Assembly (NCBI GenBank): GCA_943736015.1
Contig: OX031070.1
Span: 21,783,673 to 21,847,672 of the forward strand
DNA length: 64,000 nt
From: Tridacna crocea
Taxonomy: Eukaryota; Mollusca; Bivalvia; Cardiida; Cardiidae
Reading direction: 5' to 3'
Each line of letters begins with the position of its first letter. Positions within the stretch are counted from its first letter, which is position 1. The notes beneath the pieces are model-generated. The model did not search any database. It saw only the letters and a list, made by a program, of their open reading frames with translations, and was not told the origin of the DNA. Of the stretch, positions 12,782 through 63,479 are shown piece by piece. The translations under genes and the position numbers were made by a program.

Positions 12782-13930
12782 TCATAGGCATGTGCCTCTA
12801 TGGTCCTTTTCTTCTTTGTTAGGTCTTGTAGTACCCGCCTCCGGCCCATAACATTCGGGTGAAAACTTTACTGGATTATTTTTCCAAAAATTATTCAATG
12901 AATTTTTAAAACTATTTACGTTCTCACTATTTACAATATCCCTGGGCAGCTTATTCCATGCGTTGACAGTCCTCTGAGTAAAACTAAATTTTCGCAGGTT
13001 GGTTCTACATAATAAATTATGTTATTATAAATCTTGAAATCATGTCCTCTGGTGGTATTTTATGTATGACTGGATGGGAATAATTTATTTTTGTCTACTC
13101 TGTCTATGTTTTTCATTATTTTAAATAACTGTATGAGGTCAGATCTTTGTCTTCTGTATTCGAGTGTTGGTAAACGAAGATGTTTTAATCTTTGATTGTA
13201 ATCTTTGTCTTTCAAACATTGTATGATCTTTGTTGCCCTCCTTTGTACATTTTCTAACTTAGTCTCTTCTTCTTTGTAGATAACAGACCACACATTTGAA
13301 CCATATTCAAGTTGGGGATGTATCAGACTTTTATATAGGATAAGGATCATGGATTTGTCGATGTAGTTGAATGATCTTTTAATCAAGCCAAGGATTTTGT
13401 TTGCAGTTTTAGCTTTTATATTGATATGTTCTTTAAAGGATAATTTGTCGTCAATGTGAATGCTTAAGTCTTTTTCTGTAGTGTCTTTGATTACGTCCTT
13501 TTAAATAATTGATATCTAGTTGTTTTATCTTTGTCAATTTGTAAATGTTTACACTTTTCTTGGTTGAATTTCAATAGCCAAGTATAAGACCAATCTTGCA
13601 GGTTATTTAAATCTTTCTGGAGGATTTTCTGCTCATTCTCAGTATTTACAGCAGAATATATTTTTGTGTCGTCCGCAAACAATTTTGTAGCATTAACGGT
13701 ACATTCTGGCAAATCGTTTATGAAAATGTTGAAGAGAGTTGGTCCAAGGACACTTTCTTGAGGGATACTGCTTATGACTCTTGCAAAATTATATTGTGAT
13801 CCATTTAATACCACCCTTTGTTTGCTGTCTGTCAAAAACTCTTAATCCATTCTAGAAGACTAGTTTATCAAATATCTGCTGAAAGAAACTGTATTTATCA
13901 AATGCCTGCTGTCTTATAAAAAGCCCTTGA
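12782..13930 (-). pseudogene. Non-LTR retrotransposon (LINE) ORF2 3' fragment, inactivated
   Basis: The C-terminal part of a non-LTR reverse transcriptase is readable on the minus strand. It runs in order as LEWIKSF, KQRVVLNG, QESVLGPTLFNIFINDLP, then the catalytic FADD motif (FADDTKIYS), then the thumb/C-terminal part LYKSLIHPQLEYGSNVW, NVQRRATKII and, near the end, a FTQR ... AWNKLP region. The ORF ends with TGA at 12782-12784. It is broken by a frameshift near 13495-13510, a TAA at about 13060 and another frameshift near 12990-13030. It is 5'-truncated near 13930, since the N-terminal RT motifs and endonuclease are absent. The order and motifs fit a CR1/Jockey-group element; the clade is an inference. 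It is a dead copy with no host role. Confidence 0.9.
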
Positions 13931-19443: not shown

Positions 19444-19714
19444 GATATGGTCTGCAACAGGCAAAAAGGGGCCCTTAGACGTTTGTGTACAGTGTTGCCT
19501 CGGATCAGCCTGTGCAGTCCACGCAGACTGATCCGAGACGACACTGTCCGATCGTTTGTGTTTTTTTGTTCACGCAAGCCCACTGTAGATCAAAATTTGA
19601 TGTTGACGTAAAGTGCCATCTCGATTTAGCTTGAGTAGTCCGCACAGGCTAATCTGAGACGGTACTTCACGCAAATGTCCGACAGACCGTTCTTGCGTGT
19701 TGCATACCAATTAT
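19444..19714. mobile_element. Family D MITE, diverged
   Basis: Ends tatggtctgcaacaggcaaa / tcttgcgtgttgcatacca. It has two internal hairpins built on gatcagcctgtgcagtcc-like and aggctaatctgagacgg-like arms. Confidence 0.75.
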
Positions 19715-20639: not shown

Positions 20640-21120
20640 AAAACTTATTTTATTTCATGCTTTCCGGTATAGGATATCGAGAAATAGCAGCGAAAATATT
20701 TTTCGATCTTACACTGTTACTACCAGTGAAAATACCGATTTTCATCATGATCTTGTTGCCTATAGGTAAATTGCGCGTGCCTCACAACCAGATGGGAAAT
20801 ATGGCGTCATATACCTAATATTTCTCGCGTTTGACGTAATATTGTAATGCGTTGCTATGCGGGAGGGGTACACCATGGGGAATAACGGAAAAGAACTCGA
20901 CTAGATTTTGATAAAGCTCCTCCCAGAAAGGGTTAAAGGCGTGAAATAAATAGAATATTTGTTTTTTATCGGTGTAAGATCGAAATTTATTTTATCGAGT
21001 AAACACCATCGGTAATATTTCACGAGTGGCGCAGCACTCCTGAAAATATTACCGATGGTCTTCACTCGATGAAATAAATTTCGATCTTTCACCGAAAAAA
21101 ACAAATATCCTCTATATCTT
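20640..21120 (+). mobile_element. Family B element, long form
   Basis: The left part has ttatttcatgctttccgg, atatcgagaaata, ccagtgaaaata, gcgcgtgcctcacaaccaga, gacgtaatattgtaatgcgt, acaccatggggaat, ctagattttgataaagctcc. A hairpin at about 20949-21117 follows (gaatatttgttttttatcgg ... ttcgatctttcaccgaaaa). The left part recurs at 29574, 39042 and, reversed, at 32440, so it belongs to the element. It has no coding capacity that I recognise. It may be an internally deleted DNA transposon. Confidence 0.75.
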
Positions 21121-22042: not shown

Positions 22043-22313
22043 TATATGGAGTGCAACACGCGAAAAGGGTCATTCGGACATCTGCGTAAAGTGTCGTCTC
22101 GGATCAGCCTGCGCAGTCCGCGCAGGCTAATCCGAGACGGCACTTTCCGTTTTAATGCCATTTTCTGTTTTGCGCATGTCTACTGTAGCACAAAATCTAA
22201 TGTAGTCGTAAAGTGCCGTCTCGGATTAGCCTGCGCGGACTGCGCAGGCTGATCCGAGACGACACTTTACGCAGATGTCCGAATGCACCTTTTCGCGTGT
22301 TGCACTCCATATC
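22043..22313. mobile_element. Family D MITE, best copy
   Basis: Terminal inverted repeats atatggagtgcaacacgcga / tcgcgtgttgcactccatat. There are two separate internal hairpins: gtctcggatcagcctgcgca with its partner, then cggattagcctgcgcggact with its partner. Open frames rich in SRISLR, LRRLIR and CRLGLACADCAG-like strings come from these GC-rich arms and recur in every copy on either strand, so they are not proteins. Confidence 0.85.
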
Positions 22314-24434: not shown

Positions 24435-24663
24435 TTAACCCATTACCACACGACAAAAGTTTACACTGGTCCAAATTGAAAGCATTTGCAGATGACAAAA
24501 TAAAGACGACTGAAAAATTGAAATTTGTTCTGGAAAGGGAAGAAAGCACTGTGGGAAAAGGAGAAAATGCTGGTTACCAGCATTTTCTCCTTTTCCCACA
24601 GTGTTTTCAAAAGGCTTCTTTCTCAGGGGCGTCAAAAGTAGGGATTGTGTGGTAATGGGTTAA
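24435..24663. mobile_element. Family A MITE, reference copy
   Basis: Family A defined. TTAA at both ends, followed by CCCATTACC / ggtaatggg. One flank contains ctggtccaaattgaaagcat ttgcagatgac; the other contains aggcttctttctcaggggcg and aaaagtaggg. Between them is a ~56-bp near-perfect hairpin. Total length is about 225 bp with no coding capacity. TTAA target sites with ends starting CCC are the hallmark of piggyBac-type transposons, so an origin from one is likely though no transposase is present here. Private feature: the stem reads cactgtggg ... cccacagtg, with both arms changed together from the usual cattgtggg ... cccacaatg. Confidence 0.85.
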
Positions 24664-28043: not shown

Positions 28044-28312
28044 ACGGCCTGTAACATGGGAAAAGAGGCATGAGGACATTTGCGTAAAGTGTCGTCTCCG
28101 ATCAGCCTGCGCTAAGTACCGCAGGCTAATTCTAAACGAAACTTTCCCGTTTTATGTAATTTTCTGTTTTATGCAAGTCTACAGTGGGACAAAATCTAAT
28201 GTAGTCGTAAAGTGCCGTCTCGGATTAGCCTGCGCGGACTGCGCAGGCTGATCCGAGACGACACTTTACGCAAATGTCCGAATGCCCTTTTTCGCGTGTT
28301 GCAAGCCATATC
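28044..28312. mobile_element. Family D MITE
   Basis: The left terminus is decayed; the right ends ttcgcgtgttgcaagccata. Its second hairpin is almost identical to that of 22043-22313. Confidence 0.8.
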
Positions 28313-29355: not shown

Positions 29356-29573
29356 GAAATGAACCCTTTACTCCATAGATACTCATTTTTATGCATTGCT
29401 TGTAGGAGCCTTTGGAAAACATTGTGGAAAAGGGTGATATTGCTCGTGACCAGCAATTTTACCTTTTGTCACAATGTTTTCCATGCTATCAATAGGTGTT
29501 ATATACACATAAGAAACGGCTTCATCCTTGCTGTTAGAGATACCATAGAAATGGCTTATGGGGTAAAGGGTTT
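29356..29573. mobile_element. Family A MITE, A2 type
   Basis: gaaccctttactccatagat; hairpin attgctcgtgaccagcaat; right end atggcttatggggtaaaggg then TTTAA. It leads directly into family B. Confidence 0.8.
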
Positions 29574-30012
29574 AATTTTTGGAATTTATTTCATGCTTTC
29601 CGGCAGGTTATCGAGAAATACCGGTGAAATATTTTTCGATATTTCATGGTTACGACCAGTGAAAATATCGATTTTTATATTCCAGTTACCAAGGTAAAAT
29701 GGTCGTTACTCATAACCAGCGGAAATATGACGTCATTTACCTTACATTTCTCGCGATTGACGTAATATTGTAATATTTTGCTATGCGGATGGGGTACGCA
29801 CTGGATTTTGATAAAGTTCCTCCAAGAAAGGGTTAAAAGCAGGAAATAAATAGAATATTTGTTTTTCCCCGGTTAAAGATCGAAATTTATTTCATCGAGT
29901 GAACATCATCGGTAATATCGGCACAACCACTAGTGAAAATATTGCCGATGGTGTTCACGAGATGAAATGAATTTCGATCTTTAACCTAAAAAAAAAACCA
30001 GATATCCTCTAT
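29574..30012 (+). mobile_element. Family B element, long form
   Basis: Same order of landmarks as 20640-21120, hairpin 29851-30012. It contains TGACGTCA at 29728-29735, a perfect CRE-type palindrome. Confidence 0.75.
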
Positions 30013-31338: not shown

Positions 31339-31553
31339 TTAACCCTTATCCTGCCAAATGAAAACTGTTTGACGATTACTCAAAGACATTTTGCAATATG
31401 TACTGGCATTTGGTTGAGCTTATATGACCCAGACTACCGATGAAGCAGCGGAGGGTGTAGAGCAAGATCAGACTGCACGTATGTGCAGGCTGATCTTGCT
31501 CTACACACTCCGCAAAGGTTATCCATGGTCGCCAACGGCAGGATAAGGGTTAA
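31339..31553. mobile_element. Family C MITE, variant hairpin
   Basis: TTAACCCTTATCCTGCC / GGCAGGATAAGGGTTAA ends are almost perfect. Both stem arms differ from the usual family C in the same way (gtagagcaagatcag and the complement instead of gtagatcaagatcag). Confidence 0.8.
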
Positions 31554-32438: not shown

Positions 32439-32850
32439 ATAGAGGATTTTTTTTTTTCCGGTGAAAGATCGGAATTTATTTCATTTCGTGAACATCATCG
32501 GTAATATTTTCTCGAGTGGCTGCGTATTACCGATGGTGTTCACGAGATGAAATAAATTTCGATCTTTCACCGACAAAAAAAAAACAAATATCAAAATCCA
32601 GTACAGTTCCTTTCCGTTATTCCCCGTGGCGTACCCCTCCCGTATAGCAACGCATTACAATATTAGTCACGCACGAGAAATTTAAAATAAATGACGTCAT
32701 TTTTCAATCAAGTTGTGAGGCACGCGCAATTAACCTAGGCAACAAGAACATGAAAATCGGTATTTTCACTGTTGGTGCCAGTGTACGGAACGAAAAATAT
32801 GTTCACTGTCGATATCCTAACGGAAAGCATGCCATGAAAGTCGGTGAATT
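32439..32850 (-). mobile_element. Family B element, long form, reversed
   Basis: Hairpin first (32439-32590), then the extension in reverse (ccccgtggcgtacccctccc, gaggcacgcgcaatt, ggaaagcatgccatgaaa). Contains TGACGTCA at 32692-32699. Confidence 0.75.
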
Positions 32851-33619: not shown

Positions 33620-33848
33620 TTGAACCCTTTCCCAAACAAGCCCTGGTTTTTACGTGTCTGCAGCAAAAGTCTTTTGAAAACACTGTGGAAAAAGGAGAAA
33701 TTGCTCCTTACGAGCAATTTCTCCTTTTCCCACAGTGTTTTCTATCCTTTTTGAGAACTTTCTGCCATTTTGTCAAGATTTAAAATTGTCGTCTGCAAAC
33801 TGTTTCAGCTTGGAAGAGTCCAAAATTTGTTGTTTGGGAAAGAGTTAA
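33620..33848. mobile_element. Family A MITE, A3 type
   Basis: Ends use CCCAAAC/GTTTGGG rather than CCAAAC. Stem cactgtgg ... cccacagtg with inner arm gaaattgctccttacgagc. Confidence 0.8.
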
Positions 33849-34259
33849 GCAAGCATTCAAGATAGTTTTTGTTCACAACGAAGAATACGACAATCCCTTT
33901 ATCTGCTTCTCATGCAAAGTGAAAGCTAATCAAAATGTCAAACCATTTTTCAGTGCGATGGCATTTGTCAGATTAATTAGGTTTTGCAAATTTTTGTATT
34001 TCTACAAAATTTTATTGATCCATTATTTTCAATCAAGTCCTTTCTATCTAAAAAAAAAAGGATAACGGCAATAATAACGAAACCCTCGAAACACCATAAC
34101 AAAAGTAACATGCTAAACTTTGAAACACCTCTGCTCAGGTCCTTTGAAATCAAATGGTCTCGTCATAGACGTATACTGCACTACCGTTGTTGTGGTTTTT
34201 TCTAAGATAATAAATTATGCTTTAAAATAATAAGAAAATAAGAAAGTCATGATACTAGA
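33849..34259. other. Unassigned stretch
   Basis: Nothing recognised. Confidence 0.3.
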
Positions 34260-34522
34260 ATATGCGGTCTGCAGCATGCAAAAAGGGGCCTTTGGACATT
34301 TGGGTAAAGCTCTTGGATCATCCTATGTAGTCCGAGCAGGCTAATCCGAGACGGCACTTAACGTCAACATTAGTTCTTGTCTTATACTAGACTTGAAGCA
34401 GAAAATCTCAGACGATAGGTAAATATCGTCTCAGATCAGTCTGTGCGGAATGCGCAGGCTGATCCGGCAAGGCGCTCCTCGCAAAGGTCCGCATGTCACT
34501 TTGTGCATGTTGCACGCCATAT
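34260..34522. mobile_element. Family D MITE, diverged, first of a pair
   Basis: tatgcggtctgcagcatgca / gtgcatgttgcacgccata ends; hairpin arms decayed. Confidence 0.7.
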
Positions 34523-34774
34523 GGCCCGCAACACGCGAAAGGGGCATTCGGACATTTGCGAAAAGTGCCGTCTTGGATCAGTCTGCGCAATCCGCGCAGG
34601 CTAATCCTTGACGACACTTTCCGCTTTTATATAATTTTCTGTTTTGTGCAAGTTTACTGTAGGACAGAATCCTTTGTAGTCGTAAAGTGCCGTCTCGGAT
34701 TAGCCTGCGCGGACTGCGCAGGCTGATCCGAGACGACACTTTACGTAAATGTCTTTCCGCGTGCTGCAGACCAT
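34518..34774. mobile_element. Family D MITE, second of a pair
   Basis: Starts at the end of the previous copy (catatggcccgcaacacgcg). The right hairpin is close to that of 22043-22313; ends gcgtgctgcagacca. Confidence 0.8.
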
Positions 34775-36912
34775 TTATTATCCAGATACCTAGTGCAGCC
34801 ATTTCTACTGTGTGTTAGACATGCTTTACGTTAGATTACCACCGACAGCTCTCTTATTTGATATCGTACTTGGCTCAATGGATCGGCTTTCATGAATTGC
34901 AATCACATAGTAGCAAAGTTTGGTTCGACGTGGCTCCTGTCACATTAGAGAGCTTTGGGCAACGACAATATAGGAAACAAGTCTTGGGACGATCAAAATC
35001 CAGCAAAGATTTAATAAAGTAGTTGCGTTGTATGACTAAGACAGTGTTGAAAGTTGCCTAAATAAGCCGCTAAAACAAAAAATCAAGACGTCCACTTGTG
35101 TTACAGCATCTAGTTGCGAAAGAAATTCCATAAGCTTCCCCTTTTTTGTAAGATGAAGGAAAAAACAAGGATATCCGCTCACAGACTTTTGTAGTCGTCT
35201 TGGGTAGGATAAATTACAATATAAACGTAACAGTATCTCCAATGTAACAAGTTGATTGTACACTTGAAAGCAATTAATAACAAATGGAAAGTTTACGTAG
35301 AGCTATTATGTGATACAATAATCGCCAAGACGGTACGCTTTATTTTCGTGTTATTCTTTACCCTCCGTGTTGTGGATTCTAAATGTCTTAGATGAGACAA
35401 GATTAATTACTACCAGCCTGCTTATTTGATAACTTAGCGAAGTCTTTGCCAGACGGCAACACTCGGACACATCTACATTAAAAGTATTTTAAAATCAAGG
35501 GAACAAAGCATCTATCATATCTTTGTGCATCATCTCTTTCTGTTAAGGACAAAACTACAGTCACATTTTGCAGGCCGATTGAAACTTGGGTACACTTTTA
35601 ACAGACTAATGAATTCTATTGCCAACATCAATAGTTCGAGATAATAGTTCAATCAAAATTGATAACATCCTAAATTAATAACTGATTATTCAAGTTACAA
35701 ATCACGATAGTAACAAAATTATACAAATATGCCATGATGCATATACATGTATAATAATTTTGAAAAAATGTTGATTTCGTTCTTGGGATAAACCCGTTCA
35801 TCAGATTTATTTAAGATAGCAGCCCATTCGCTTATTGTACGCCGTTGAAACATAGTTGGCAGCAACACCCTTTCTAAGAGCTGATGCTGGCTTATTTGCT
35901 CTCTGACCGTTTTCGAACTTACGCCTCTGCTATCTTTTTATGGCTAATTTATTATATGTATCTTGTGTAATATGGAAATTGAGCACCTCGCTCTGGCCAT
36001 TCTTGCTTGAAATTACTAGCATCTTTTAAGATGATATGGACATGCCTTAACGAAAATGGGTTGAAGCATCCTATACCAGACAAGTCATCACATAACTGAT
36101 AAGTCAAAACTCACCTTTTGTTTATTTTTGTATGTGAAAGATCAGTATGAAAAATATCTGATCTAGATGTGTGTAGAGTGCAAAGCAAAGGAAAGTTCCC
36201 GTAGCAAGTATAAAATCATTTTCTAAGTATGATTATAAATCAAACCTTTTAAATGCGAACCACTCACAGTGCTTTCAGCACTTTGATTTGCCTGCCAATC
36301 TTGTCTTTTATTTGTTTTGACATCTTCAGCTGAAATTCTACCACAATCTTGTTTGAGAAATAATTTGAAAAGGTTTTGAAGAAAGATTTGTCAATACTTT
36401 TTAAAATAGATAAATAAATAGCAATTTCATTTTCGAAGTGAAGCAAGGGAAGATAATATTATATTTTTGGACATTGTATCTGGTCATGTATGCTCTAGCA
36501 TTTCTCAGTCGTTTCCTTATTCTTACTGGCTAAAGTGTTCCTGATTTTTAAGGAAGGCAATGTTTCATTGACTAAACAAAATAGCTTTACCAAGTTGCAG
36601 TTGTAATTCTGCTTAGAAGCAAACACATCCTTCTGTTTTTTCGTCAGTGCTCGAAGCAGAGCTAGGTATTCACTCACGATGAGTCAATTACCAAGTGCTG
36701 TCGCTAAAGGCAGCTTTAAAACCTAATTTAGAACAATTTTCCTCATACAAGTTACTGATTGTTAAACAGATTGAAACCAAAAAGCTCATAAAATATTGAT
36801 GGTCACTCATGTAATTAGACACAAGTGTTTCTGTCTGACCAAGCGAATATTTGCCAATTGTTGTGATTAAATACATTAATCCTTTACCAAACAATACTCT
36901 GTTTACAACAAG
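34775..36912. other. Longest unassigned stretch (2.1 kb)
   Basis: AT-rich, with short open frames only on the minus strand and none with familiar motifs. No MITE family member was found, unusual for this window. Confidence 0.35.
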
Positions 36913-38180: not shown

Positions 38181-38412
38181 TTAACTCTTTACCCCATGAG
38201 GCATTTCTATGGCATCTCTATATAATTGACACTAAATAACAGCAAGGATGAAGCCGTTTCTTATGTATATATTATACCTTTGGTGGTGTAGAAAACATTG
38301 TGGCAAAAGGTGAAATTGCTCGTCACGAGCAATTTCACCTTTTGCCACAATGTTTTCCAAAGGCTCCTACAAGCAATGTGTAGAAATGAGTATCTATGGA
38401 GTAAAGGGTTAA
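38181..38412. mobile_element. Family A MITE, A2 reference copy
   Basis: A2 defined. Same TTAA...CTTTACC ends as A, but the flanks read gaggcatttctatggcatct and catatacacataagaaacgg-like. The hairpin arms are gtggcaaaaggtgaaattgc and the exact complement around tcgtcacga. Stem perfect over about 28 bp. Confidence 0.85.
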
Positions 38413-39041: not shown

Positions 39042-39429
39042 GAAATGCGCGTGCCCCACAACCAGATGGAAATATGACGTAATTTACCTTACATTTTTTG
39101 CTCTTGACGTAATTTTGTAATGCGTTGCTATGAGAAGAGGGTGCGCCACGGGGAATAACCGACAATAACTGTACTGGATTTTGATTAAATTTCCCCCAGA
39201 AAGGATTAAAAGGATGAGATAAATAGAATATTTGTTTTTTGTACGGTGAAAGATCGAAATTTATTTCATCGACTGAACATCGCCAGTAATATTTTCACAA
39301 GTGGCGCAACCACGAGTGAAATATTACCGATGATGTTAACTATGCGCCAGTCGTAAAAATATTACCGATGATATTCCCTCGATGAAATAAATGTCGATCT
39401 TCCACCTTAAAAGACAAATATCCTCTATG
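39042..39429 (+). mobile_element. Family B element with duplicated right arm
   Basis: gcgcgtgccccacaaccaga ... hairpin 39225-39429. The segment cgtaaaaatattaccgatga-t occurs as an extra copy, so the hairpin has two right-arm pieces. Confidence 0.7.
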
Positions 39430-39879
39430 TATTAACATGTACATGTATTTAAGATTAACAACTCATATAGCATTTAAATATGTGCAATGAATAATGAAAT
39501 AGTCCGGTGATCAGAGAAAGCTGATACAAGGTGCGGGCTACATCAGTTTTGTCAACCATATATCTAATAATCTGAAATTCGAATACCATGAATTATTTCT
39601 TTTGAACTAGATCGACCAAAGAGATATCCGATCAACTGTAAAGTAGATATTTCCGATATGTAAATTGGAATCAATTATTAATTACAGAATAAACATAAAG
39701 TTGTATCGAATTGTAAACGGTAAATTTGTTATATATTCACTGACAATACAAACTGTTTTTGTTTGTAAAAAAATCCTCTTAAATGGTCCCCTGAACACTT
39801 TACCTCTATGACCTAAGAGAAAAATATCATTCTGGATGAAGCTTGAAACAACACAAATAAGTTGGGTTATGGAGTACGA
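39430..39879. other. Unassigned AT-rich stretch
   Basis: Nothing recognised. Confidence 0.3.
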
Positions 39880-42500
39880 GGATTGTCAAGGCAAAGATGA
39901 GGAATACTATGGAGGTGAAATCTGTCGAAATAAAAGTAAGATGGATCTTGGCGGAAGGTTGTCGAACGCCCCTCAGGAAGAAGATGAGGAATACTATGGA
40001 GGTGAAGTCTGTCGAAATAAGAGTAAGATGGATCTTGGCGGAAGGTTGTCGAAATTCATTGAAACAGATTATGTGAGATGATACTATCTATGAGCAGAGC
40101 TCCTGATAGATTGAGTGATTTTGATTTCAAAATTGAAAGTTTATCAAAGATGAGGAATACTATGGAGGTGAAATCTGTCGAAATAAGAGTAAGATGGATC
40201 TTGGCGGAAGGTTGTAGAAATTCATTGAAACAGATTATGTGAGATGATATTATCTATGAGCAGAGCTCCTGATAGATTGAGTGATTTTGATTTCAAACTT
40301 GAAAGTTTATCAATTATTCTCCACTAAACCCTGTCTTGTGGGTACCCATTAGAATCGTCTCATCGAGACGATTCTAATGAGTACTCACAAGAAAGGGTTT
40401 CGAAGAGAAGTAACGAATTTAGAATACCATCAGTCCCTCTCATCTAGAGCTCTGTATAAGACACAAGATAGATTTGGGGAATAGGCTACGAAGTTCGTAA
40501 ATACACTGATAAGATAGATTATCTAGGTAAATTTTGTTAAGACACAGTAGGGGTGGATTGTGAAGGGCAAAGTTTGCAAAACGACAGATACGATACATAA
40601 TGGAGGGTGAAGGTTGTCAAGGCACAATTGAATAGATTATAGAGGAAAAATGTTGTAGAGACATATTCAAAAGTTCAATATATATATACAGTAAAGTTCA
40701 TGAAGACCCATGTAAGGTAAAGTAATTAATTGGGGAGAAGTTTGTAAAAGCATAGATATATATGTTATATGGGACGAAATTTGTAAAGACACAGATATTT
40801 AAAGTATGTGAGGCAAAAATAAGATAATTTATATGGAGAGAAGCTAGTCAAGGCAAGCATAAAATGGATAATGGGGGCAAAGTTTGTCGAAACAAACATA
40901 AAATAAATTACGTAGGGTGAATATTTACAAGTCACAGATGAAATACCGGTAAATTATAAAGAGCAAATAATGTCGAAATAAAGATAAGGTAGGCCATGTT
41001 GGACGAACAAATCACGTGTAAAGTGGATGATACAGGGTGAAGTTTGTCGAACAACAGATAAGATATAAGATAGATCATGAAGGACGACACAGATAAGTTA
41101 GTCATGCAGGGCGAAGGTTGTCAAGACACCGATATGCTAGATTATTGAAGGCAAATTTGTCGAGACACAGATTAAGATAGATAATGTAAAGTGAAGGTTG
41201 TCAAAATACAGATGAGATAAATTATACTGGGTTGAGATTGTCAAGATGCAGATAAGATAAATTATGCAGGACAAAGATTGTCATATCACAGGTAAGATAG
41301 ATTATGGAAAGCAAAGTTTGTTGGAAACAGATTAGATAGATTATGCAGAGGAAAAGATTGTCATAATACAGGTAAGTTATGCTGGGCGAAGGTTGTTTCG
41401 ACATCAATAAGATATATTGTGAAGGTTATCAAGAACCAGATAAACGAAGTTATGAAAGGTGAAAGTTATCAAGATATATATGAAATATTAATTATGCACA
41501 GCAAACTTTCTTAAAATACAGATAAGATAGACTATGGAAGGCGAAGTTTGTCGAGACACAGATAAGATTGATTATGCGTAGCGAAGGTATTCAAGACACA
41601 GATAAGATAGACTATGGAAGACAAAGTTTATCGAGGCACAGATAAGATTGATCATTCAGAGCGACGGTTGTCAAGACGCAGATTAGATAGAGTATGGAAG
41701 ACAAAGTTTGCTTAGACACAGATCTGTATTCAAGACACAGAGAAGATAGACTATGGAAGGCGAAGCTTAGTTGGACACAGATAAGATAGGTTATGAAGGT
41801 TGAAGGTGGTCAAGACACTGATAAGATTGATTATGCGTGGCGAAGGTATTCAAGACACAGATAAGATAGACTATGAAAGGCAAATGAAATGTTAAGATCA
41901 TCGGGTGGTCAAGACATCGATAAGATTTGTTATGAAGGTATTCAAGACAAAGATAAGATAGAATAGGCTATGGAAGGCGAAGTTTGCCGAGACACAGATA
42001 AGATAGGTTATGAAGGTTGAAGGTTGTCAAGACACCGATAAGATTGATTATGAGTGGCGAAGGTATTCAAGACACAGATAAGATAGAATATGGAAAGCGA
42101 AGTGTATCGAGACACAGATAAGATGGATTATTCAGGGCGAAGATTACCAGGACGCAGATAAGGTAGATTAAACGGGGAGAGAAGGTTGTCACTACACAAA
42201 TGAGATAGGTAATGAAGGGCGAAGGTTGTCAAGACGCTGATTAGAGAGAGTATGGAAGGCAAAGGTTTTCAGGACACAGATGATATCGATTACGATGGGC
42301 GAAGGTCATCAAGCCGCAGATAAGATGGATTATGAAGAGCAAAGGTTGTCATGACAAAAATAAGATAGCAGTTGCAGAACGAAGATTGTCAAGACACATG
42401 TAAGGAAGGTTGTGAAGGGCAAAGATTGTAAATACGAGTACAAATAAGATTAAATACGCTAGTACGGACATAAGATGGACTTTGAAGGACGGGACGAAGT
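39880..42500. repeat. Minisatellite, ~40-bp period
   Basis: About 50 imperfect units after 40460, each resembling cagataagatagattatgga aggcgaaggttgtcaagaca. The first part (39890-40216) is a higher-order block with three ~70-bp copies of gaggaatactatggaggtga ..., each ending ggcggaaggttgtcg. A family G MITE is inserted at 40264. The 81-residue plus-strand open frame at 39836-40081 is the reading of these units, including repeated EEYYGGE; the frame does not persist through the array, so it is not a protein. Confidence 0.9.
40264..40452. mobile_element. Family G MITE in the minisatellite
   Basis: agctcctgatagattgagtg attttgat ... hairpin gaatcgtctcatcgagacgattc ... cagtccctctcatctagagct. Its left end plus adjoining repeat also occurs at 40060-40145, so insertion preceded a local tandem duplication. 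Confidence 0.75.
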
Positions 42501-47732: not shown

Positions 47733-47961
47733 TTAACCCATTACCACGCAATCCCTACTTTTGACGACCCTGAGAAGAAAAGCCATTTCAAAACATTGTG
47801 GGAAAAGGAGAAATGCTGGTAACCAGCATTTTCTCCTTTTCCCACAATGTTTTCTACCCTTCACAAAACAAATTTCAAGTGCTCAGTCACTTTTATTTTG
47901 TCATGTGCAAACGCTTTCGATTTGGACAAACCTAAAATTTTGTCGTTTGGTAATGAATTAA
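47733..47961. mobile_element. Family A MITE
   Basis: TTAACCCATTACCACGCAATCC ... gtcgtttggtaatgaaTTAA. The stem is near-perfect apart from one missing A in the left arm. Confidence 0.85.
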
Positions 47962-48104: not shown

Positions 48105-48340
48105 CTTAGCTCATTACCAAACGATAAAATTTTAGGTAGCCTATGTCCAAATTGAAAGCATTTGCAGACGACAAAATAAAAGTGATTGAAAATTTGAAAA
48201 TTGTTTTACAAAGGGTAGAAAACATTGTGGGAAAAGGAGAAAATGCTGGTTACCAGCATTTTCTCCTTTTTCCCAAAATGTTTTCTAAAGGCTTCTTTTT
48301 CAGGGTGGTCAAAAGTAGGGATTGTCTGGTAATGGGTTAA
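48105..48340. mobile_element. Family A MITE, reversed
   Basis: cattaccaaacgataaaatt ... gtctggtaatgggTTAA; hairpin gggaaaaggagaaaatgctg gttaccagc. Confidence 0.85.
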
Positions 48341-48621: not shown

Positions 48622-48722
48622 TGCACTGCTAAAAGGAGGCTTAATTCATCTGCGAAAAGTATCGACTCAGGTCAGCCTGCGCATTCCGCGCAGGCTGACC
48701 TGAGCCGAAACTTTTCGCCATT
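48622..48722. repeat. D-like single hairpin
   Basis: gcgaaaagtatcgactcagg tcagcctgcgc / gcgcaggctgacctgagccg aaacttttcgc. Both arms share ctcaggtcag rather than the ctcggatcag of family D. Confidence 0.75.
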
Positions 48723-56069: not shown

Positions 56070-59000
56070 GTGAATATTGAAGCGCACTTAGTGTCCATAC
56101 AGTCGGACATAACCTAAATGACTAATTTTGTATAGAAATAAAAAACCAGAACACCATGTCAGTAACCTACGTTACAATTATATTAAAGTTTTTATTTCAT
56201 TTTAGGTTTATTTGATATGATTATCAAAATATCTTATAAATTTCTAGGCAGTTGTTGATACTGATATAATTTCTAAGGGGAAACCTGGCTGTTGCAGCCA
56301 ATGCAGGTTTTAACCCTTTACTCCACAGATACTCATTTCTACACATTGCTTGTAGGAGCCTTCGGAAAACATTGTGGCAAAAGGTGAAATTGCTCGTGAC
56401 GAGCAATTTCACCTTTTGTTACAATGTTTTCTATGCTATCAAAAGGTGTCATATATACATAAGAAATGGCTTTATCCTTGCTTTTATTTAGGGTCAATTA
56501 GAGATACCATAGAAATGCCTCATGGGGTAAAGGGTTAAACTGGAGCAAAGGGCATTGCACAGGTGCTCAACTGCTAGAATACCTATCATTAATCCAATAT
56601 TCAGTGCATATGTATATTATTTTCAATTTGCCATATTACACAATGAAATGTTTTTTGATACAGGATGGAAATAATCTCATCATCAAGTTGTGTTCAACAA
56701 TACCATTACATGAAGACCGATTGGTTGTAAAGTTTTCTCAAGTGGTGAACAACTGGAGAAGAAAACAAATGGTAAAACTTTCTTTAACATCTTAAACTCT
56801 TAACAGAGCTCCAGATAGACCAGGCAAAGATTGATCTCACCGAGAAGATTCTAACGAGTACCCACAACATATCATTTTGAAGTGAAATAATGGATATATC
56901 AAAGCATTGACGATTGTGGAAACATCAAGTGACTGGCATGTGGCTAATGACTTTTAAATTCCATAACAGAACAAACATGTAATTTTTTTCAGGGTGTCTT
57001 CTTCAGATGCTATAATGTTTGAAGCTTCATCTCTGTATTTCCGGTATGTAAATGAACGAGTTGCTATTTCTTAAAATAGACCATGTTTCTCATCGGTCTT
57101 GACCTGGGCCATAGTAAATCCCTAATTTCTCTTGTTGGATGGTTTTGGATTACCAGGATTTATGAATGAAAATTAGAACTTAGAAGGCTTTTGGAGTATA
57201 AAGATAATCTTACTGTATTTTTGTAATTTTTTGTTCTTTTATAACCAATTTAAAAAAAGAAAAAAAAAACTTGTCATGTGTTATTGTTCAAACTGGAACC
57301 TATTTTATTCACAATGTTATGTATGGGAAAGTGGCTTTGGTGTTTTTCAGCAAATTTGCAGCAATATTTTAAAAAGTGGTCTGTATAAAGGAAAAACAGT
57401 TACCTGCATGTAGTAATGATTAAAGCCTTAACAGTTCCAAGTTTTAACTCAACGAGAAACAGCTTTTGCAAAAAGCTTGAGGAAAAGGAATAACTGCTTG
57501 TGAATAGAATTTTTTCCTTTTCTCACAATGCTTTCTACCTCTTCTGAAAGAAATTCCATCATTTTAGCCACACGTAATTTATTGTCAACAAATGCTTTCA
57601 ATCTGGAAAAGTCTTAAACTTTTTCCTATGGTAAAGTATGAGTTACTGACTTATTAACCCTTTACCAAATAATCCCTTGTTTTTATGACCCTCAAGTGAA
57701 AGCCCTTTGAAAACATTGCGGGAAAAGGAGAAAATGCTGGTAACCAGCATTTTCTCCTTTTCCTACAATGTTTACAACTCTTCTAAAGTCAAGTTTCAAG
57801 TTTTGAGTCATGTTTATTTTGTTTGTCTGCAAAAGCTTTTAATTTGGACAAGGATAACATTTTATTCTTTGGTAAAGAGTAAAGGCTTTCCTCCCCTGAA
57901 GCTTCAGGTCAACATGACACAATTTTTGTTGTTGTTAGGTTATGGAAAATTTATCATTATTCAATAATTCCATACATTTTTAACCACTCAGAATTTCTTC
58001 AAATGTCTGTCTACTAAGAATTTCTTCAAATGTCTATCTAAAAAAATTTTGTTCATACCTTTTTTTACTTTTTTTATAAAGGGAGGTTATAATATTAATC
58101 TCCCTTAGAAGTAAGGATATAGTGATTTTAGAACTAAAAATGATAATTTCATGAATGCAAAAAATCCCAAAGTGGCTCGGTTAAGATGCTACAACAGAGA
58201 TGATTTTTTCATGATGTCATATTTTCCAGAGTAAATTTACAGAGGAAAAAAGATGTTGTGCTTCAGGGTTGGAACACCTTAAGATAAGAGATTCTGTGCT
58301 TTCTGATTGTAGTCCACAGAGTCCACAACAGCATGTAAAATTGACATGCATTTTAAGTTTTGAAACAGAAGTTTTTAATACATATTTTTCCAGTTAGTGC
58401 TTACAGAACAATGTATACAGATCATCACAGACTATTTGATTAAAGCAGTGCAGAGATGTCAGTCTTGGGCCATACCAGACCTACTGAGGACGCTTGGGGC
58501 CATTGTGTATGAAAACTGTGACAGAGTCCTTATGGTAAGGGCCAAAGAACATTCTCTTTAGTGTATTTTAGCTCGGCTGTTTTCAAAGAAAGCGTCAAAA
58601 ATATTGTCATAGCCTAGTCTTCCTGAAAAGCTGATGTTTCTGTCATAACTGAGAGCATTTATTTCAAACTCGGGCTAGTTCTAGTTAACCAAAAGGAACC
58701 ACTTTTGATTTTGACCAGGCAAAAAATCTGCCTAGCATTTTTTTCCCCTAGCTATACAAATTTTAATTCCTGACAATCCTTCTTAAACAAATAAACTGCA
58801 GAGCAAGCTTGATTATCACAAAAACATGGATCACACATCTTTTTTTTTTTTTTTCTTGATATAATTCTTTACCGCACAATTACGATTCTTAATGACCTTG
58901 AGAAGGAAAGCTTTAGAAAACATAGTGGGAAAAGGAGAAAATGCTGGTAACCAGTATTTTCTCTTTTTCCCACATTGTTTTCTGCCCTTCCAAAATCAAA

Positions 59001-62000
59001 ATTCCAAAATTAAAATTCAATTTTTGAGTCATATTTATTTTGTCATCTGCAAGTGCTTTCAACTTGGACTTGTCCGAAATTTTATCATTTGATAATTTTT
59101 CTGTTAACTTTTTCAGTTCTATGATCAGCTCCTTGGAAGACAGGGTGTTCTGATACAACTTGTTAATGATAGTGTTACTGATACAGAAGCTTTGAAAGAG
59201 GCAGTGATGTGCATAGAGAGCTTGACAATGAAGTAAGCTGCTTAATATTACTTTTTTCTTTTTCTCCTTTTCAGTCACTTTAACTCTTTACTGAACAACA
59301 AAATTTAAGACTAGTTCAAAGTGAGAGCATTTGTAGACAACAAAATAAATTTGAATCAAAAACTGAAATTGGATTCGGGAAGGAAAGAAAACATGATGGG
59401 AAAAGGAGAAAATGATGGTTACCAGCATTTTCTCCTTTTCCCATCATGTTTTCAAAAGGCTTCTTCCTCAGGACCGTTAAGAGGTGTCATTGTGTAGTAA
59501 AGCTTTAACCATTTCAAAAACAGTCTCATGTTGTAACCCTGCATTACACAATCCTAAGTGTTAACAACCCTGCCCTGACAGGGTAGGGTATGTGACTCAT
59601 GAACTTTTGGTTGTGTGTTCTATACCTGGTTGTGGCAAACTTTCTTTTTGGCCATTTTTTGCCCTTTACCTCTGATGCAAGTGAGAAAAAAGCAGTCAGT
59701 TGCATGGAAAGAAAGTTGTGTCAGTACTAGTGTGATAAAGCCAGGAAACACATAGATAAATCCAGTGGCTGCCATTATTTGACCTAAGTTGTTAAAATAA
59801 CCCTTTACCAGATGACAAAATTCTAGCCTTGTCCAAATTAAATGCATTTGCAGATGTGTATTTCATATGTGGCTCAAATGGTGCAAATTTTCTTTGATAG
59901 GGCAGAAAAAATTGTGGGAAAAGGAGAAAATGCTGGTTACCAGCATTTTCTTCTTTTCCCACAATGTTTTCAAAAGGCTTCTTTCCCAGGGGCCTCACAA
60001 GGCGGCATTGTGCGGTAAAGGGTTAACTCTAATACAAATAAATTAGTTTTCTGTAAAACAGTGTGGGCAGCAGAGCTGGTGACTAGCATTTTTTCTCCTT
60101 TTCCCTCCAACTTTTCAAAGAACATACCATTATTTTAGTCTCATCAAAATTTTTATGTCTTGCTAAATGGTTAATGACATACATTCAATTGTCTTCTTAT
60201 CTATCTCTGTTGTGAAATTTTTTACTTCATGTGATTTTGAGTTCCTTTAGCTGTCAGTTTTTGCTAAAATCAAGTGACAAAAAGGAGAGCTCATATTTTG
60301 TAATTCCATCATTTGGCTGATTTTTTTTTTTACTCTTGGATTATCAACATTTTGTTTAGGTTGGTCATCCATACATATATTTTTACCAGGAGTTTAAAAA
60401 AAATTGTGTGTTACAAATTAATCTTTTGCTCTATTAGCTTTTCATTGAATTTGAAAAAAATATTGGGAGTAAGGCAATAATTGAAGGTTTTAGGACACAC
60501 AAAGTTCTGAATTAAGTATGCATTAGTTACATGTAAATCTGATGGCATTCTTGTAAAATAATGATTATCAGCATAGATTAATATTTTAAGTGATATTAAT
60601 TTGGAAGCATTGTGGCAAAAGGAGGAATTCATGGTGAAAACTATTCATTTCATTATGTTTTCAAAAAATTTCTGATAGACAAAAAAGTCATTTGCAAGAG
60701 TTAATGGGTATATGGTGTACAAAACAACCTAAGATCTACTGAACCTGAAAAAGAAAACTACTTTAGACAATGTGAGAAATGCAAAAATTGCTGGGTTTTT
60801 CCTGGTTTGAAAGACAGATCCATTCATTTTTACCACTTCTATTTTTATTGTCTGTACAAGATTTTAACCACTTCTGTTTTTATTGTCTGCCAATGCTTTC
60901 TGATTTGAAAAGTCTAAATTTTTTTCATTTAATAATTTATATACAGTTAATCCTGTATTTCAGACCAAGTGGTGGGGATTACATATCTACAGAGTATTTA
61001 GAAATTTGTTTCAACATGTTTTGCATGCTACTGCATAGAATTCCAACCACAAAACTGGACCAACATACTCAGAGTAAGGTATGTGAGCATTGAATCTTTT
61101 AGTATGCTGAAAATGTCAATGGAAAACAATTTAAATTATTGCTTTATCAGAAAGCAGACTTTTTGACTTTCTGAATTGATATTGAATGGATTTTCGTGTG
61201 ATAAATGAGAACTGATAGGGTTTGTTTTTAGAGATATGTAGAAATTATTACCGGAGTGTTACTGTGACACAATCAAGGTCACAGGGGTTCAAAGGTCACA
61301 CGTACTGGAATCATGTCAGCCCGCTATTTCTTGAACCCCTTGGTCTAATTTTAAGAATGTTTCTCAAATGTGTCCATTTTGATAACATAATTTACTTAGA
61401 AGGGAGGCTACACATTCAAGGTCAAAGTCATAGCAAGAGGTTGTGAAGCTTTTTGTGAAAATATGTGGTTCTTAGGAAAGGCAAACACCTTGTGATGAGT
61501 CTTTTTATTACAGATATTTTCTATGTTCATTAATCATTTAAATGATAAGACTGGGCTACTAGAAGATTGGAAATTCGTTTCAGTAAGTTGGGTCTATCTT
61601 CATCCAGTTCAAGAATATTTTTCTGTAAGCTGACAATATGCATATTTTCACTTTTTACAGGTCCTTATAAGCTGTCTTCGTGGGATTCAGAACATCTTAC
61701 AAGTGACAAAAGTTATGCCCCTTGACAAACTGGGTCTCCTTCTAGCAGCTGTTAGGGTAAAGATGAGATTAATATATACAGTTCTGATAAAAGCCCAAGT
61801 CATCACATAATTATGGATCCATAATAGCCACTTGTTAACCCTTTACTCCATAGATACTCATTTCTATGCTTTGCTTGTAGGAGCCTTTGGAAAACATTGT
61901 GGCAAAAGGTGAAATTGCTCGTCACAAGCAATTTCACCTTTTGCCACAATGTTTTCTACACTGTTAAAAGGTGTCATATTCACATAAGAAATGGCTTCAT

Positions 62001-63479
62001 CCTCGCTGTTATTTAGGGTCAATTAGAGATACCATAGAATACCATATGGGGTAAAGGGTTAAAATAAACGATGTAATACTGAGGTAGACTTGTCCTTTGA
62101 CAAACAGAAAATTGACCAGTAGGGAAAAGTGTCAGCCTGCACAGGCTGAGGTGAGTGGATACTTCTTGCATATGCTTTAACTCATTACCTCTAGACAATA
62201 TTTCAGGCTTGTCCAAATTGAAAGCATTTGCAGACAACAAAGTAAAAGTGACTGAAAATTTTAAATTTGTTTTGTGAAGGGTAGGAAACATCATGGGAAA
62301 AGGAGAAAATGCTGCTTACCAGCATTTTTTCCTTTTCCCACGTTGTTTTCTAAAGGCTTCTTTCTCAGGGTCGTCAAAAGTAGGGATTGTGTGGTAATGG
62401 GTTAAGCCCCCCTTTTCACAGAGCATGGTTCAATATATTTTATTTTTATGGCACTCATGCACTGAAATTTATAATGTTTTCTCTAGAAATACATATAATG
62501 CCAACTGTTTCTGTATATTACAGGCATACATGTTCTTTGGACTGTACAGCCAGCCTCTAGACATACCAGACAGTTTATATCCGTCTCCTCTAACCAAACA
62601 TGAACTTCCAGTACTGGGTAAAATGTCTGAAACCCCAACACCCACAAAGGACAATACTGAAAGAGATGGTAAATAAGGATACTCATTACTTTTTTAACTC
62701 TTACCACTTAATCTAGAGTTTTAACAACCCTAAGGGAGAAGCCTTTTGAAAACATTGTGGAAAAAGGAGAAAATGCTGTTACCAGCATTTTCTCCTTTTT
62801 CCACTATGTTTTCTATTCTTCCAAAGGTAAATTTCTCTTTATAAGTGATAATTATTTTTTTGGCTGCAAAAGCTTTTGATTTAGACAAATCTGACTTTTT
62901 TTTTGCTTTTTTGTCAAGAATGAATGATCATGGATAATCATATATTTAGCAGCCAGTGTGACTGGCATTAGATTTTGCTCTATATTGAGTGGAACCAATG
63001 AGGTTGTTAAAGTCTTATTTTTGGAATCCTTTGGGTTCTTCTTGTTATTTATGGTCAAATGTGTAATCTACTAGCTTTTGTCATACTATGCTCTTGTGGC
63101 AGCCTGTTGACTGTATAACAATTTATATGTCCCTCTCCTATATTGGATTATCAAAGTTTTGCTTTATATATGATAAGGTCAAAAGAAAATCAAAAGGAAA
63201 ACTAGAAAGAAAAATGAAAAATCCAAAGGAGCACAGTCAAGATCTGAAGAAGATTCTAGTCATACAACAGAACACACATCAGACACTCAGCCAGTCTCTG
63301 CCATATCCAGGACAGCAGAGCTTGACAAGGAGATGGGTGTTTACTCCCAGACCTGGGCGGGTATCAGTAGTTCAGACTCAGAGTGGTCAGATACAGAGGG
63401 AGGTCAAGTGTCAAGGGCAAGGTCAAGCTGTACGAAGGTCAGGCAGTGTGCCCTCAGCTGCTTCTACTGGATAGTTAAG
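55899..63479 (+). CDS. HEATR6: HEAT repeat-containing protein 6, N-terminal part (exons 1-8)
   Basis: Eight exons (55899-56069, 56664-56771, 58394-58534, 59117-59232, 60964-61078, 61661-61756, 62524-62668, 63178-63479) splice in phase to 398 codons. The translation follows vertebrate HEATR6 in order, as I remember it: an N-terminal helical region, an EQ ... W ... LL.ALGAIVY repeat, a region with LRGIQNIL ... LGLLLAAVR, MFFGL ... LYPSPL, a lysine-rich linker, and SSSDSEWSDTEGG followed by KVRQCALSCF, where the family's conserved DUF4042 region begins. The human protein is about 1180 residues, so two thirds lie past 64000. The start is the first in-frame ATG after a TAG at 55842, in a good context (gccATGg). 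The family consists of helical HEAT-repeat scaffolds whose biochemical role is poorly known. Nothing else in the window suggests a partner gene. Confidence 0.92.
56070..56663 (+). other. HEATR6 intron 1
   Basis: GT at 56070, AG at 56662-56663. It contains a complete A2-type family A MITE (56310-56538). Confidence 0.85.
56310..56538. mobile_element. Family A MITE, A2 type, HEATR6 intron 1
   Basis: TTAACCCTTTACTCCACAG ... catggggtaaagggTTAA. The left stem arm is exact; the right arm has two changes (ttttgttaca). Confidence 0.85.
56664..56771 (+). CDS. HEATR6: HEATR6 exon 2
   Basis: 36 codons, DGNNLIIKLCS to WRRKQM, between CAG and GTAAAA, phase 0 at both ends. It corresponds to the LLVQACRLVPLNQ ... 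VSQLIHHLL helix pair of vertebrate HEATR6. Confidence 0.9.
56812..56905. mobile_element. Family G fragment, HEATR6 intron 2
   Basis: agagctccagatagac ... gattgatctcaccgagaaga ttctaacgagtacccaca; only part of the family G hairpin remains. Confidence 0.5.
56922..57245 (-). mobile_element. Family H fragment, reversed, HEATR6 intron 2
   Basis: Read on the minus strand it contains ctcgttcatttacata, tctgaagaagacaccct, attacatgtttgtt and catgccagtcacttg in the same order as 28828-28980, then the first half of the element upstream. The TTAAAGGTGG end is decayed. Confidence 0.65.
57428..57650. mobile_element. Family A MITE, decayed, HEATR6 intron 2
   Basis: TTAACAGTTCC ... gaggaaaaggaataactgct ... 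aatttattgtcaacaaatgc tttcaatctgg ... tatggtaaagtatgagTTA. Confidence 0.65.
57654..57893. mobile_element. Family A MITE, HEATR6 intron 2
   Basis: Almost intact and adjacent to the previous copy in the same orientation. TTAACCCTTTACCAAATAAT ... ctttggtaaagagtaaa, with a near-perfect ctggtaaccag stem. Confidence 0.85.
58394..58534 (+). CDS. HEATR6: HEATR6 exon 3
   Basis: 47 codons, LVLTEQCIQIITDYL to YENCDRVLM, between ttccag and GTAAGG, phase 0. The vertebrate counterpart has VDEQ ... IHQCSSWTHREVLQAL.LVY, so this is the most recognisable N-terminal HEAT unit. Confidence 0.95.
58862..59096. mobile_element. Family A MITE, HEATR6 intron 3
   Basis: tctttaccgcacaattacga ... gtgctttcaacttggacttg tccg ... 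catttgataa. It ends 20 bases before the exon 4 acceptor, and its right arm may replace the usual pyrimidine-rich intron end. Orientation is the same as 57654. Confidence 0.8.
59117..59232 (+). CDS. HEATR6: HEATR6 exon 4
   Basis: 116 bases: FYDQLLGRQGVLIQLVND to CIESLTM, then AA of a split codon, between tttcag and GTAAGC. It matches YLPELLGNTGLLMKLSDL ... MANL in vertebrates. It is flanked closely by two family A MITEs in opposite orientation. Confidence 0.93.
59280..59508. mobile_element. Family A MITE, reversed, HEATR6 intron 4
   Basis: TTAACTCTTTACTGAACAAC ... gtgtagtaaagctTTAA. The stem reads catgatggg ... cccatcatg: both arms changed together from the usual cattgtggg ... cccacaatg. Confidence 0.85.
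59577..59790. mobile_element. Probable SINE remnants, HEATR6 intron 4
   Basis: 59582-59640 resembles a tRNA-SINE head (gggtatgtgactcatgaact tttggttgtgtgttc). 59720-59780 read on the minus strand (taatggcagccactggattt atctatgtg) resembles the 3' core seen at 45940. The two parts are in opposite orientation. Confidence 0.4.
59797..60026. mobile_element. Family A MITE, reversed, HEATR6 intron 4
   Basis: ataaccctttaccagatgac ... gtgcggtaaagggTTAA; stem gggaaaaggagaaaatgctg gttaccagc. Confidence 0.85.
60057..60950. mobile_element. Decayed family A traces, HEATR6 intron 4
   Basis: Three weak copies: 60057-60173 (agcattttttctccttttcc), 60602-60710 (ggaagcattgtggcaaaagg) and 60730-60950 (attgtctgccaatgctttct gatttg). 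Limits are approximate. Confidence 0.45.
60964..61078 (+). CDS. HEATR6: HEATR6 exon 5
   Basis: 115 bases; the first base completes the lysine codon begun in exon 4 (AA+A). Then PSGGDYISTEYLEICFNMF to LDQHTQSK, ending before GTATGT. The vertebrate counterpart has ... PYQNVCFQAFLTILQ. Confidence 0.9.
61079..61660 (+). other. HEATR6 intron 5
   Basis: The only complete HEATR6 intron here in which I find no MITE. It ends with a good tract and acceptor (cactttttacag). Confidence 0.8.
61661..61756 (+). CDS. HEATR6: HEATR6 exon 6
   Basis: 32 codons, VLISCLRGIQNIL to DKLGLLLAAVR, phase 0, between tttacag and GTAAAG. It matches ALKGIQSLL ... LGALLAVLK of vertebrate HEATR6. Confidence 0.95.
61835..62062. 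mobile_element. Family A MITE, A2 type, HEATR6 intron 6
   Basis: TTAACCCTTTACTCCATAG ... tatggggtaaagggTTAA. The stem is perfect except one A in the loop-side of the right arm (tcgtcacaagc). Confidence 0.85.
62177..62405. mobile_element. Family A MITE, reversed, HEATR6 intron 6
   Basis: TTAACTCATTACCTCTAGAC ... gtgtggtaatgggTTAA; stem with asymmetric changes (catcatggg ... cccacgttg). Confidence 0.85.
62524..62668 (+). CDS. HEATR6: HEATR6 exon 7
   Basis: 145 bases: AYMFFGLYSQPLDIPDSLYP to DNTERD plus one G of a split codon, before GTAAAT. MFFGL ... LYPSPL matches the FMFHGL ... LYPTPL block of the family. Confidence 0.95.
62694..62915. mobile_element. Family A MITE, HEATR6 intron 7
   Basis: Begins 25 bases after the exon 7 donor: TTAACTCTTACCACTTAATC ... 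ggctgcaaaagcttttgatt tagac. The stem lacks one base pair in the loop (tgctgttaccagca). Confidence 0.8.
63178..63479 (+). CDS. HEATR6: HEATR6 exon 8
   Basis: 302 bases; GT completes the glycine codon left by exon 7. The frame then gives a basic linker (QKKIKRKTRKKNEKSKG), an acidic/serine part, SSSDSEWSDTEGG, and KVRQCALSCFYWIVK before GTAAAG. The last motif starts the conserved DUF4042 region. The acceptor (tatatatgataag) lacks a strong pyrimidine tract. A longer open frame in a different phase crosses this exon but does not match the family. Confidence 0.9.

What the first reader, a model, noticed from the sequence alone, without database searches (positions are those of the whole stretch)
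24435..24663. The two hairpin arms of single family A copies change together
Seen directly: most copies have cattgtggg ... cccacaatg in the stem, but 24435-24663 has cactgtggg ... cccacagtg and 59280-59508 has catgatggg ... cccatcatg. At sub-type level, A2 (gtggcaaaaggtgaaattgc) differs from A (gtgggaaaaggagaaaatgc) at several stem positions and in each case the other arm carries the complement. Family C at 31339-31553 (gtagagc in both arms) and the D-like hairpin at 48622 show the same. Independent mutation would rarely hit both arms, so something copies one arm onto the other: cruciform or hairpin-templated repair, or arm conversion during transposition. Selection for an RNA or DNA stem is the alternative.
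Basis: partly seen in the sequence, partly recalled or inferred. Interest (0 to 1): 0.75.

Follow-up and report, generated by a model that had tools for sequence, protein, structure and literature searches.

The report
Mobile-element hairpins with occasionally copied arms
A very common small DNA transposon in an unnamed, probably animal, genome carries a near-perfect hairpin; the matching changes in its two arms are mostly inherited from parent elements, but at one tested position genome counts show the arms matching each other about twenty times more often than chance.

Summary
The sequences are as described. Family A is a ~229-bp TTAA-flanked MITE with a 33+1+33-nt hairpin; one exact 57-nt hairpin core alone occurs 34,027 times in the 1.05-Gb genome. 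But 24435's CACTGTG/CACAGTG is not its own change: of 40 aligned close relatives (itself included) 37 have it in both arms. A versus A2 is also a subfamily difference. Within copies most stem changes hit one arm (430 one-arm sites, 68 symmetric, in 119 copies). Without subfamily markers, and allowing for copy age and site rate, 35 symmetric sites face 23 expected: weak.

Genome counts give one clear positive. With one arm carrying T9G and the rest exact, the other arm is T 490 times, G 146, C 7, although C9 and G9 arms are about equally common (6322, 5819). Chance predicts about 7 G/G and 8 C/G. The G/G copies arose many times (16 rows, 13 changes). A second site, G12A, shows no such preference (A/A 346, T/A 164).

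Reading: mostly inheritance, plus rare arm-to-arm copying of the known template-switch kind.

The parts
24435..24663 (+). Family A MITE copy of the finding (TTAA-flanked, TIR AACCCATTACCACAC / GTGTGGTAATGGGTT); identical copies at two other genome sites
24542..24574 (+). left hairpin arm (33 nt); one-arm G at position 5, subfamily C at position 8
24575..24575 (+). single-base spacer (T in element orientation)
24576..24608 (+). right hairpin arm (33 nt)
59280..59508 (+). Family A copy whose arms both carry T9G and G10A (CATGATGGG / CCCATCATG); best of 40 scored relatives 87%
59387..59419 (+). left arm of that copy (one-arm A at position 29)
59421..59453 (+). right arm of that copy
61835..62064 (+). 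A2 subfamily copy used as query; one right-arm-only change against the A2 majority
38181..38412 (-). A2 copy with a fully complementary hairpin (38291-38357)
56310..56539 (+). A2 copy, two right-arm-only changes
29360..29589 (+). A2 copy, six one-arm changes
33620..33850 (-). intermediate subfamily copy: A stem with symmetric changes at 8, 26 and 31 but not at 14 and 21
31339..31553 (+). GGCAGGATAAGGGTTAA, central hairpin with GTAGAGC/GCTCTAC)
48665..48718 (+).

Best explanation
Two layers. First, most symmetric differences between copies, including 24435's and all of A versus A2, are inherited subfamily states: each arose in a propagating lineage and was spread by ordinary transposition, which copies the arms as they are, mismatches included. 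Second, after a one-arm change the other arm is occasionally rewritten to match, in the resident copy or in its recent ancestor. The likeliest route is that a nascent or displaced strand folds on the palindrome and is extended on the opposite arm (intramolecular template switch, 'quasipalindrome correction'). Shown: inheritance of the 24435 state; faithful transmission of a one-arm mismatch; a 20-fold matched-only excess at position 9, with many origins. Inferred: that this excess is arm-to-arm copying, and its biochemical route. Not shown: that it acts at all stem positions; position 12 does not show it.
For: Inheritance: C/C at position 8 in 37 of 40 aligned copies. Faithful transposition: identical copies keep the position-5 mismatch. 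Matched excess at position 9 in otherwise exact 57-mers: T/T 34,027, T/G 490, G/G 146, C/G 7. If left and right arms change at equal rates, 490x490/34,027 = 7 G/G are expected. C9 and G9 arms are about equally frequent (6322 and 5819), so about 8 C/G are expected too: mismatched doubles come at chance, matched ones at 20 times chance. Differences in copy age or general mutability of the site would raise both alike. Recurrence: on a flank-only tree of 116 rows the 16 G/G rows need 13 changes and one clade is rejected (p-AU 0.00011); within one background 9 G/G rows need 9 changes, and L098 (G/G) is the supported sister (100/96) of L180 (T/G). Of 19 G/G copies, 14 have a T/T copy as nearest flank relative. 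59280's kin: 13 of 29 rows carry right-arm G9; their left arm is T in 8, G in 5, never A or C.
Against: Position 12: otherwise exact hairpins with right-arm A have left G 2689, A 346, T 164; A/A is only 1.6 times the product expectation (212), and its ratio to T/A, 2.1, is no higher than A:T among random arms (26 to 11, counted). T/A rows are as scattered over backgrounds as A/A rows (8 rows, 8 changes; 11 rows, 9 changes), so scatter alone does not prove copying. In the random copies the excess beyond markers is small (35 against 23.2; copied fraction 0.030, bootstrap -0.000 to 0.057). A2: 25 one-arm sites, 1 symmetric, 2 differently changed, in 13 copies. No co-conversion: the 27 copies with symmetric sites do not have fewer other mismatches than the rest at equal flank divergence (permutation p 0.79); L098 keeps left-only changes at positions 1 and 5. 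Spacer inversion is not clear (centre T 87, A 13, C 12, G 2). Left-only G/T and C/T were not counted; of 20 hits of the T/G pattern fetched, 4 proved to be G/T copies with an A centre read from the other strand.
Confidence: 0.6

Rival explanations
1. Inheritance only: every symmetric state marks a subfamily and no arm copying happens in resident copies.
For: True of 24435 and of A/A2. Random copies show little excess beyond markers.
Against: G9/G9 lies on several flank backgrounds, is not one clade (p-AU 0.00011) and for 14 of 19 copies the nearest relative is T/T.
Confidence: 0.2
2. Selection for a paired stem (RNA or DNA) in transposition-competent elements: mismatched lineages propagate worse, so surviving lineages look symmetric.
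For: The majority sequences of A and A2 are perfect palindromes and their four differences are all symmetric, while resident copies mostly carry one-arm changes; stem columns differ less between copies than flank columns.
Against: One-arm variants do propagate: position 5 G in 6 of 40 copies, position 12 A in 5 of 40, right-arm-only G9 in 8 of 29. It does not explain G/G scattered over single copies. It may act in addition, on long-lived lineages.
Confidence: 0.3
3. Exchange of whole hairpins between dispersed copies (ectopic gene conversion) spreads both matched and mismatched variants over flank backgrounds.
For: Would explain why mismatched T12/A12 (164 exact copies) is also scattered, and the T/T pair L047/L051 inside the C/C subfamily.
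Against: Exact G/G donors (146) are few beside exact T/T donors (34,027), so exchange should mostly erase G/G; it does not by itself favour G/G over C/G (7).
Confidence: 0.15
4. Independent mutation of both arms, inflated by old copies and mutable sites.
For: Fits position 12 and most of the random-sample symmetric sites.
Against: Predicts about as many C/G as G/G at position 9; counted 7 and 146.
Confidence: 0.15
5. Arm copying during transposition (one arm rebuilt on the other at each jump).
For: Perfectly palindromic majority sequences of A and A2.
Against: Identical copies at distinct sites carry the same one-arm mismatch.
Confidence: 0.05

Closest known systems
Template-switch mutation / quasipalindrome correction (PMC8794818: abstract and Discussion read; PMC8604942: abstract read; PMC3820800, PMC7202029, PMC7954356: starts of abstracts seen in listings)
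   Same: Imperfect inverted-repeat arms are made alike by copying one arm onto the other; recurrent parallel changes are expected.
   Different: There the evidence is from RNA genes, yeast coding DNA, reporters or ape genomes; here from dispersed MITE hairpins. No multi-site tract and no clear spacer inversion was found here.
TTAA-inserting MITEs (piggyBac-like; Kolobok also uses TTAA) - classification recalled
   Same: TTAA at both ends, short TIRs beginning CCC and ending GGG, small, non-coding, very numerous.
   Different: No autonomous partner or transposase was sought here; the long central hairpin is, as I recall, unusual for a textbook MITE.
Bivalve MITEs in general (PMC10294476, 12 of 19 passages read)
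   Same: MITEs occupy a considerable share of bivalve genomes.
   Different: That paper left MITEs unclassified, and the word 'hairpin' is not in its main text. That this genome is a bivalve is my inference only.

Membership tests
Template-switch (quasipalindrome) arm homogenisation | matched changes in both arms in excess of chance and of mismatched double changes | tested here: inconclusive
   met at position 9 (G/G 146, C/G 7); not met at position 12 (A/A 346, T/A 164)
Template-switch (quasipalindrome) arm homogenisation | independent, recurrent events in separate copies | tested here: met
   16 G/G rows, 13 changes; 9 rows, 9 changes; but mismatched T/A is also scattered (8 rows, 8 changes)
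Template-switch (quasipalindrome) arm homogenisation | several neighbouring mismatches corrected together (tract) | tested here: not met
   mismatch fraction 0.182 within 3 nt of symmetric sites, 0.152 beyond 8; no depletion overall. 59280 has two adjacent matched changes, a single case
Template-switch (quasipalindrome) arm homogenisation | spacer inversion | tested here: inconclusive
   centre T 87, A 13, C 12, G 2 in A; G 9, C 4 in A2
Template-switch (quasipalindrome) arm homogenisation | event seen arising in replication | not testable with these tools
   needs pedigrees or reporter assays
piggyBac-like TTAA MITE | TTAA at both ends | tested here: met
   TTAA strings found near the left end in 39 and GGGTTAA near the right end in 38 of 40 copies, by a loose string check
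piggyBac-like TTAA MITE | terminal inverted repeats | tested here: met
   TTAACCCATTACCACAC / GTGTGGTAATGGGTTAA
piggyBac-like TTAA MITE | mobilised by a piggyBac transposase with the same ends | not tested
   no search for an autonomous relative was made
Selected RNA/DNA stem | broken stems fail to propagate | tested here: not met
   one-arm variants shared by 5, 6 and 8 copies

The most novel reading that the evidence does not exclude
Tens of thousands or more of dispersed transposon hairpins undergo continuing arm-to-arm copying in the germ line, reaching about a tenth of single-arm changes at some positions and strongly dependent on position or mismatch type, and this process rather than selection is what builds new symmetric subfamilies such as A2.
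Probability: 0.15. Interest if true: 0.65.

Novelty: new member of a known kind. Interest (0 to 1): 0.42.

Why it matters
The origin of compensatory changes in stems is usually argued from selected RNA genes. A MITE with tens of thousands of near-identical hairpins lets the ratio of matched to mismatched double changes be counted site by site without presuming an RNA function. One site already gives a 20:1 answer and another gives none, which makes mismatch-specific or position-specific arm copying directly testable by counting.

Tried and rejected
Rejected: 24435 as a private symmetric change; copying at each transposition; a single G/G master. Tried without result: co-conversion around symmetric sites; spacer inversion. 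Not done for lack of searches: genome-wide counts of the private double variants of L028 8209-8439 and L019 362-583; left-only G/T and C/T. Families C and D were not tested at copy level. Rfam: no match in the window at gathering thresholds. The open frame at 13060-13500 had no Pfam match at E 0.001. Plasmids, with the 24435 element, and phages, with window 13000-13600: no megablast match. Literature searches; I make no claim that the family is undescribed.

My first reading of recurrence over backgrounds as proof of copying was withdrawn when mismatched T12/A12 proved equally scattered. An early estimate of about 20,000 exact T/T hairpins (5 seen in 264 kb) was replaced by the count 34,027.

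Rows dropped: one search kept 119 of 403 hits (at least 85% of columns); one search kept 215 of 659 hits, 114 of them from the window and the 20 stretches (at least 80% of columns, at most 6 gaps in the hairpin). Sites with gaps were skipped. Marker states (position 8 C or T; 14 C; 21 T; 26 T; 31 C) were left out. One of 10 fetched T/A places fell below the filter, and one of 20 G/G places. The tree holds rows within flank distance 0.22 of L103 (14 of the 20 fetched G/G copies, plus L062 and L075); that rows within 0.16, without the 24435 relatives fetched as L002-L008 and L029-L060. Of the 39 other scored relatives of 59280, 28 were fetched. The 264-kb sample holds the window, which was not chosen at random, and 20 stretches at round coordinates on contigs C1-C7 and C9.

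Full report
What it is. The window lies in a 1.05-Gb genome of 31 contigs; I suspect a bivalve from recalled repeat types, which no call tested. Family A is a ~229-bp element flanked by TTAA with short terminal inverted repeats and a 33+1+33-nt hairpin. In the window plus 20 stretches of 10 kb (264 kb) there are 119 near-full copies. The exact 57-nt hairpin core occurs 34,027 times in the genome. Ends and size make it a TTAA MITE (piggyBac-like by recalled end sequence).

The observation. The named letters are present. The 24435 copy belongs to a young subfamily: of 40 aligned copies (95-100% identical to it), 37 carry C at position 8 in both arms, one in the left arm only, and two sister copies (L047, L051) T in both. 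Three copies are identical at different insertion sites and carry the same one-arm G at position 5, so the element moves without making its arms alike. A and A2 have perfectly palindromic majority hairpins that differ at four positions, each in both arms; other copies have the changes at 26 and 31 but not those at 14 and 21, so these seem to have been acquired in steps along a propagating lineage. For the 59280 copy the best of 40 scored relatives is 87% identical; among 29 aligned copies its G10A is matched only there, L083 has it in the right arm alone, and right-arm G9 is shared by 13 rows, of which five have a left-arm G, eight a left-arm T, and none A or C.

How common is it in single copies. 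In 119 copies there are 208 left-only, 222 right-only, 68 symmetric and 25 differently changed sites. Judged against local flank neighbours, 114 copies have 67-74 symmetric sites; swapping right arms among neighbours gives a mean of 14-16. Leaving out the subfamily markers, 35 remain (21 transitions, 14 transversions); nulls give 5.5 (neighbour swap), 17.8 with maximum 29 in 500 draws (age and spectrum kept) and 23.2 (copy times position rates). The last gives an excess of 3% of single-arm sites (bootstrap -0.000 to 0.057). A2 copies have 25 single-arm sites, 2 differently changed and 1 symmetric in 13 copies. In the young subfamily the only symmetric change is the C8T pair of the two sister copies. 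So 'the arms change together' is true between subfamilies and mostly false within them.

Genome-wide counts. For otherwise exact 57-mers at position 9: T/T 34,027, T/G 490, G/G 146, C/G 7. Of 20 T/G hits fetched, 16 are right-only copies and 4 are left-only copies with an A centre read from the other strand. Arms with G9 number 5819 and with C9 6322, so an arm is about as likely to show C as G. If left and right single rates are equal, which was not counted, 7 G/G and about 8 C/G are expected: mismatched doubles are at chance, matched ones 20-fold above. In the first 100 listed arms of each kind, 4 pairs of G9 and 3 of C9 lie in one hairpin; comparing the two lists by eye I found no exact G9-C9 pair. 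Of 40 solitary G9 arms fetched (of 92 in the listing), the partner base is T 28, G 2, A 2, C 1, partner lost 7. The double variant of 59280 has 390 arms, with 2 pairs in the first 100 rows.

Independent origins. Twenty of the 146 G/G copies were fetched; of the 19 that passed the filter, the nearest flank relative is T/T at this site for 14, G/G for 3 and T/C for 2. On a flank-only tree of 116 rows, 16 G/G rows need 13 changes and a single clade is rejected (p-AU 0.00011); the bootstrap had not settled. In one background (52 rows) 9 G/G rows need 9 changes. L098 (G/G) and L180 (T/G) are supported sisters at different sites; L098 also has left-only changes at positions 1 and 5.

Result against the reading. 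At position 12 the counts are G/A 2689, A/A 346, T/A 164. A/A is 1.6 times the product expectation, and A:T given a right-arm A (2.1) is no higher than among random arms (26 to 11, counted). Ten T/A and ten A/A places were fetched; nine and ten passed the filter, and both sets are scattered over backgrounds. So scatter by itself is no sign of copying, and position 12 gives no sign of it. I have no explanation for the abundance of T/A.

Reading. A rare matching process accounts for position 9; intramolecular template switching is the known mechanism that would do this (PMC8794818, PMC8604942), but tract and spacer marks were not found. The perfect symmetry of the subfamily majority sequences, above that of resident copies, suggests that long-lived propagating lineages also feel selection for, or more copying of, a paired stem. 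I put arm copying as a real but minor process at 0.6.

Noticed in passing
whole genome, position 12 of the family A hairpin: A mismatched double change (left T, right A; 164 exact copies) is about half as common as the matched A/A (346) and is scattered over flank backgrounds; unexplained.
   Followed up: partly
A2 copies in the window and random stretches (for example 61835-62064): The single central base of A2 is G in 9 and C in 4 of 13 copies, never A or T, as spacer inversion would give.
   Followed up: partly
47796-47928 and 48144-48276: Two family A copies in opposite orientation form a 133-nt inverted repeat with 215 nt between the arms.
   Followed up: no
19498-19672, 22044-22312, 28183-28311, 34311-34786, 48665-48718: A second hairpin family (TCTCGGATCAGCCTGCGCAGTCCGCGCAGGCTAATCCGAGA type), 12 places in the window.
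   Followed up: no
20963-21101, 29862-29995, 32447-32584, 39219-39432: A third fold-back family (about ATCGGTGAAAGATCGAAATTTATTTCATCGAGTGAACACCATCGGTAATATT) with arms of 57-90 nt.
   Followed up: no
41089-42368 and 52045-52666: Tandem arrays with 40-bp and 34-bp units.
   Followed up: no
13060-13500 (-): 146-aa open frame that to my eye resembles a non-LTR reverse transcriptase fragment; no Pfam match.
   Followed up: partly
family A stem versus flanks: Arms show about half as many singleton differences per site as flanks (0.0045 against 0.0091 in the young set, 0.0157 against 0.0257 in the older set); unbiased arm copying would not be expected to lower the rate.
   Followed up: partly
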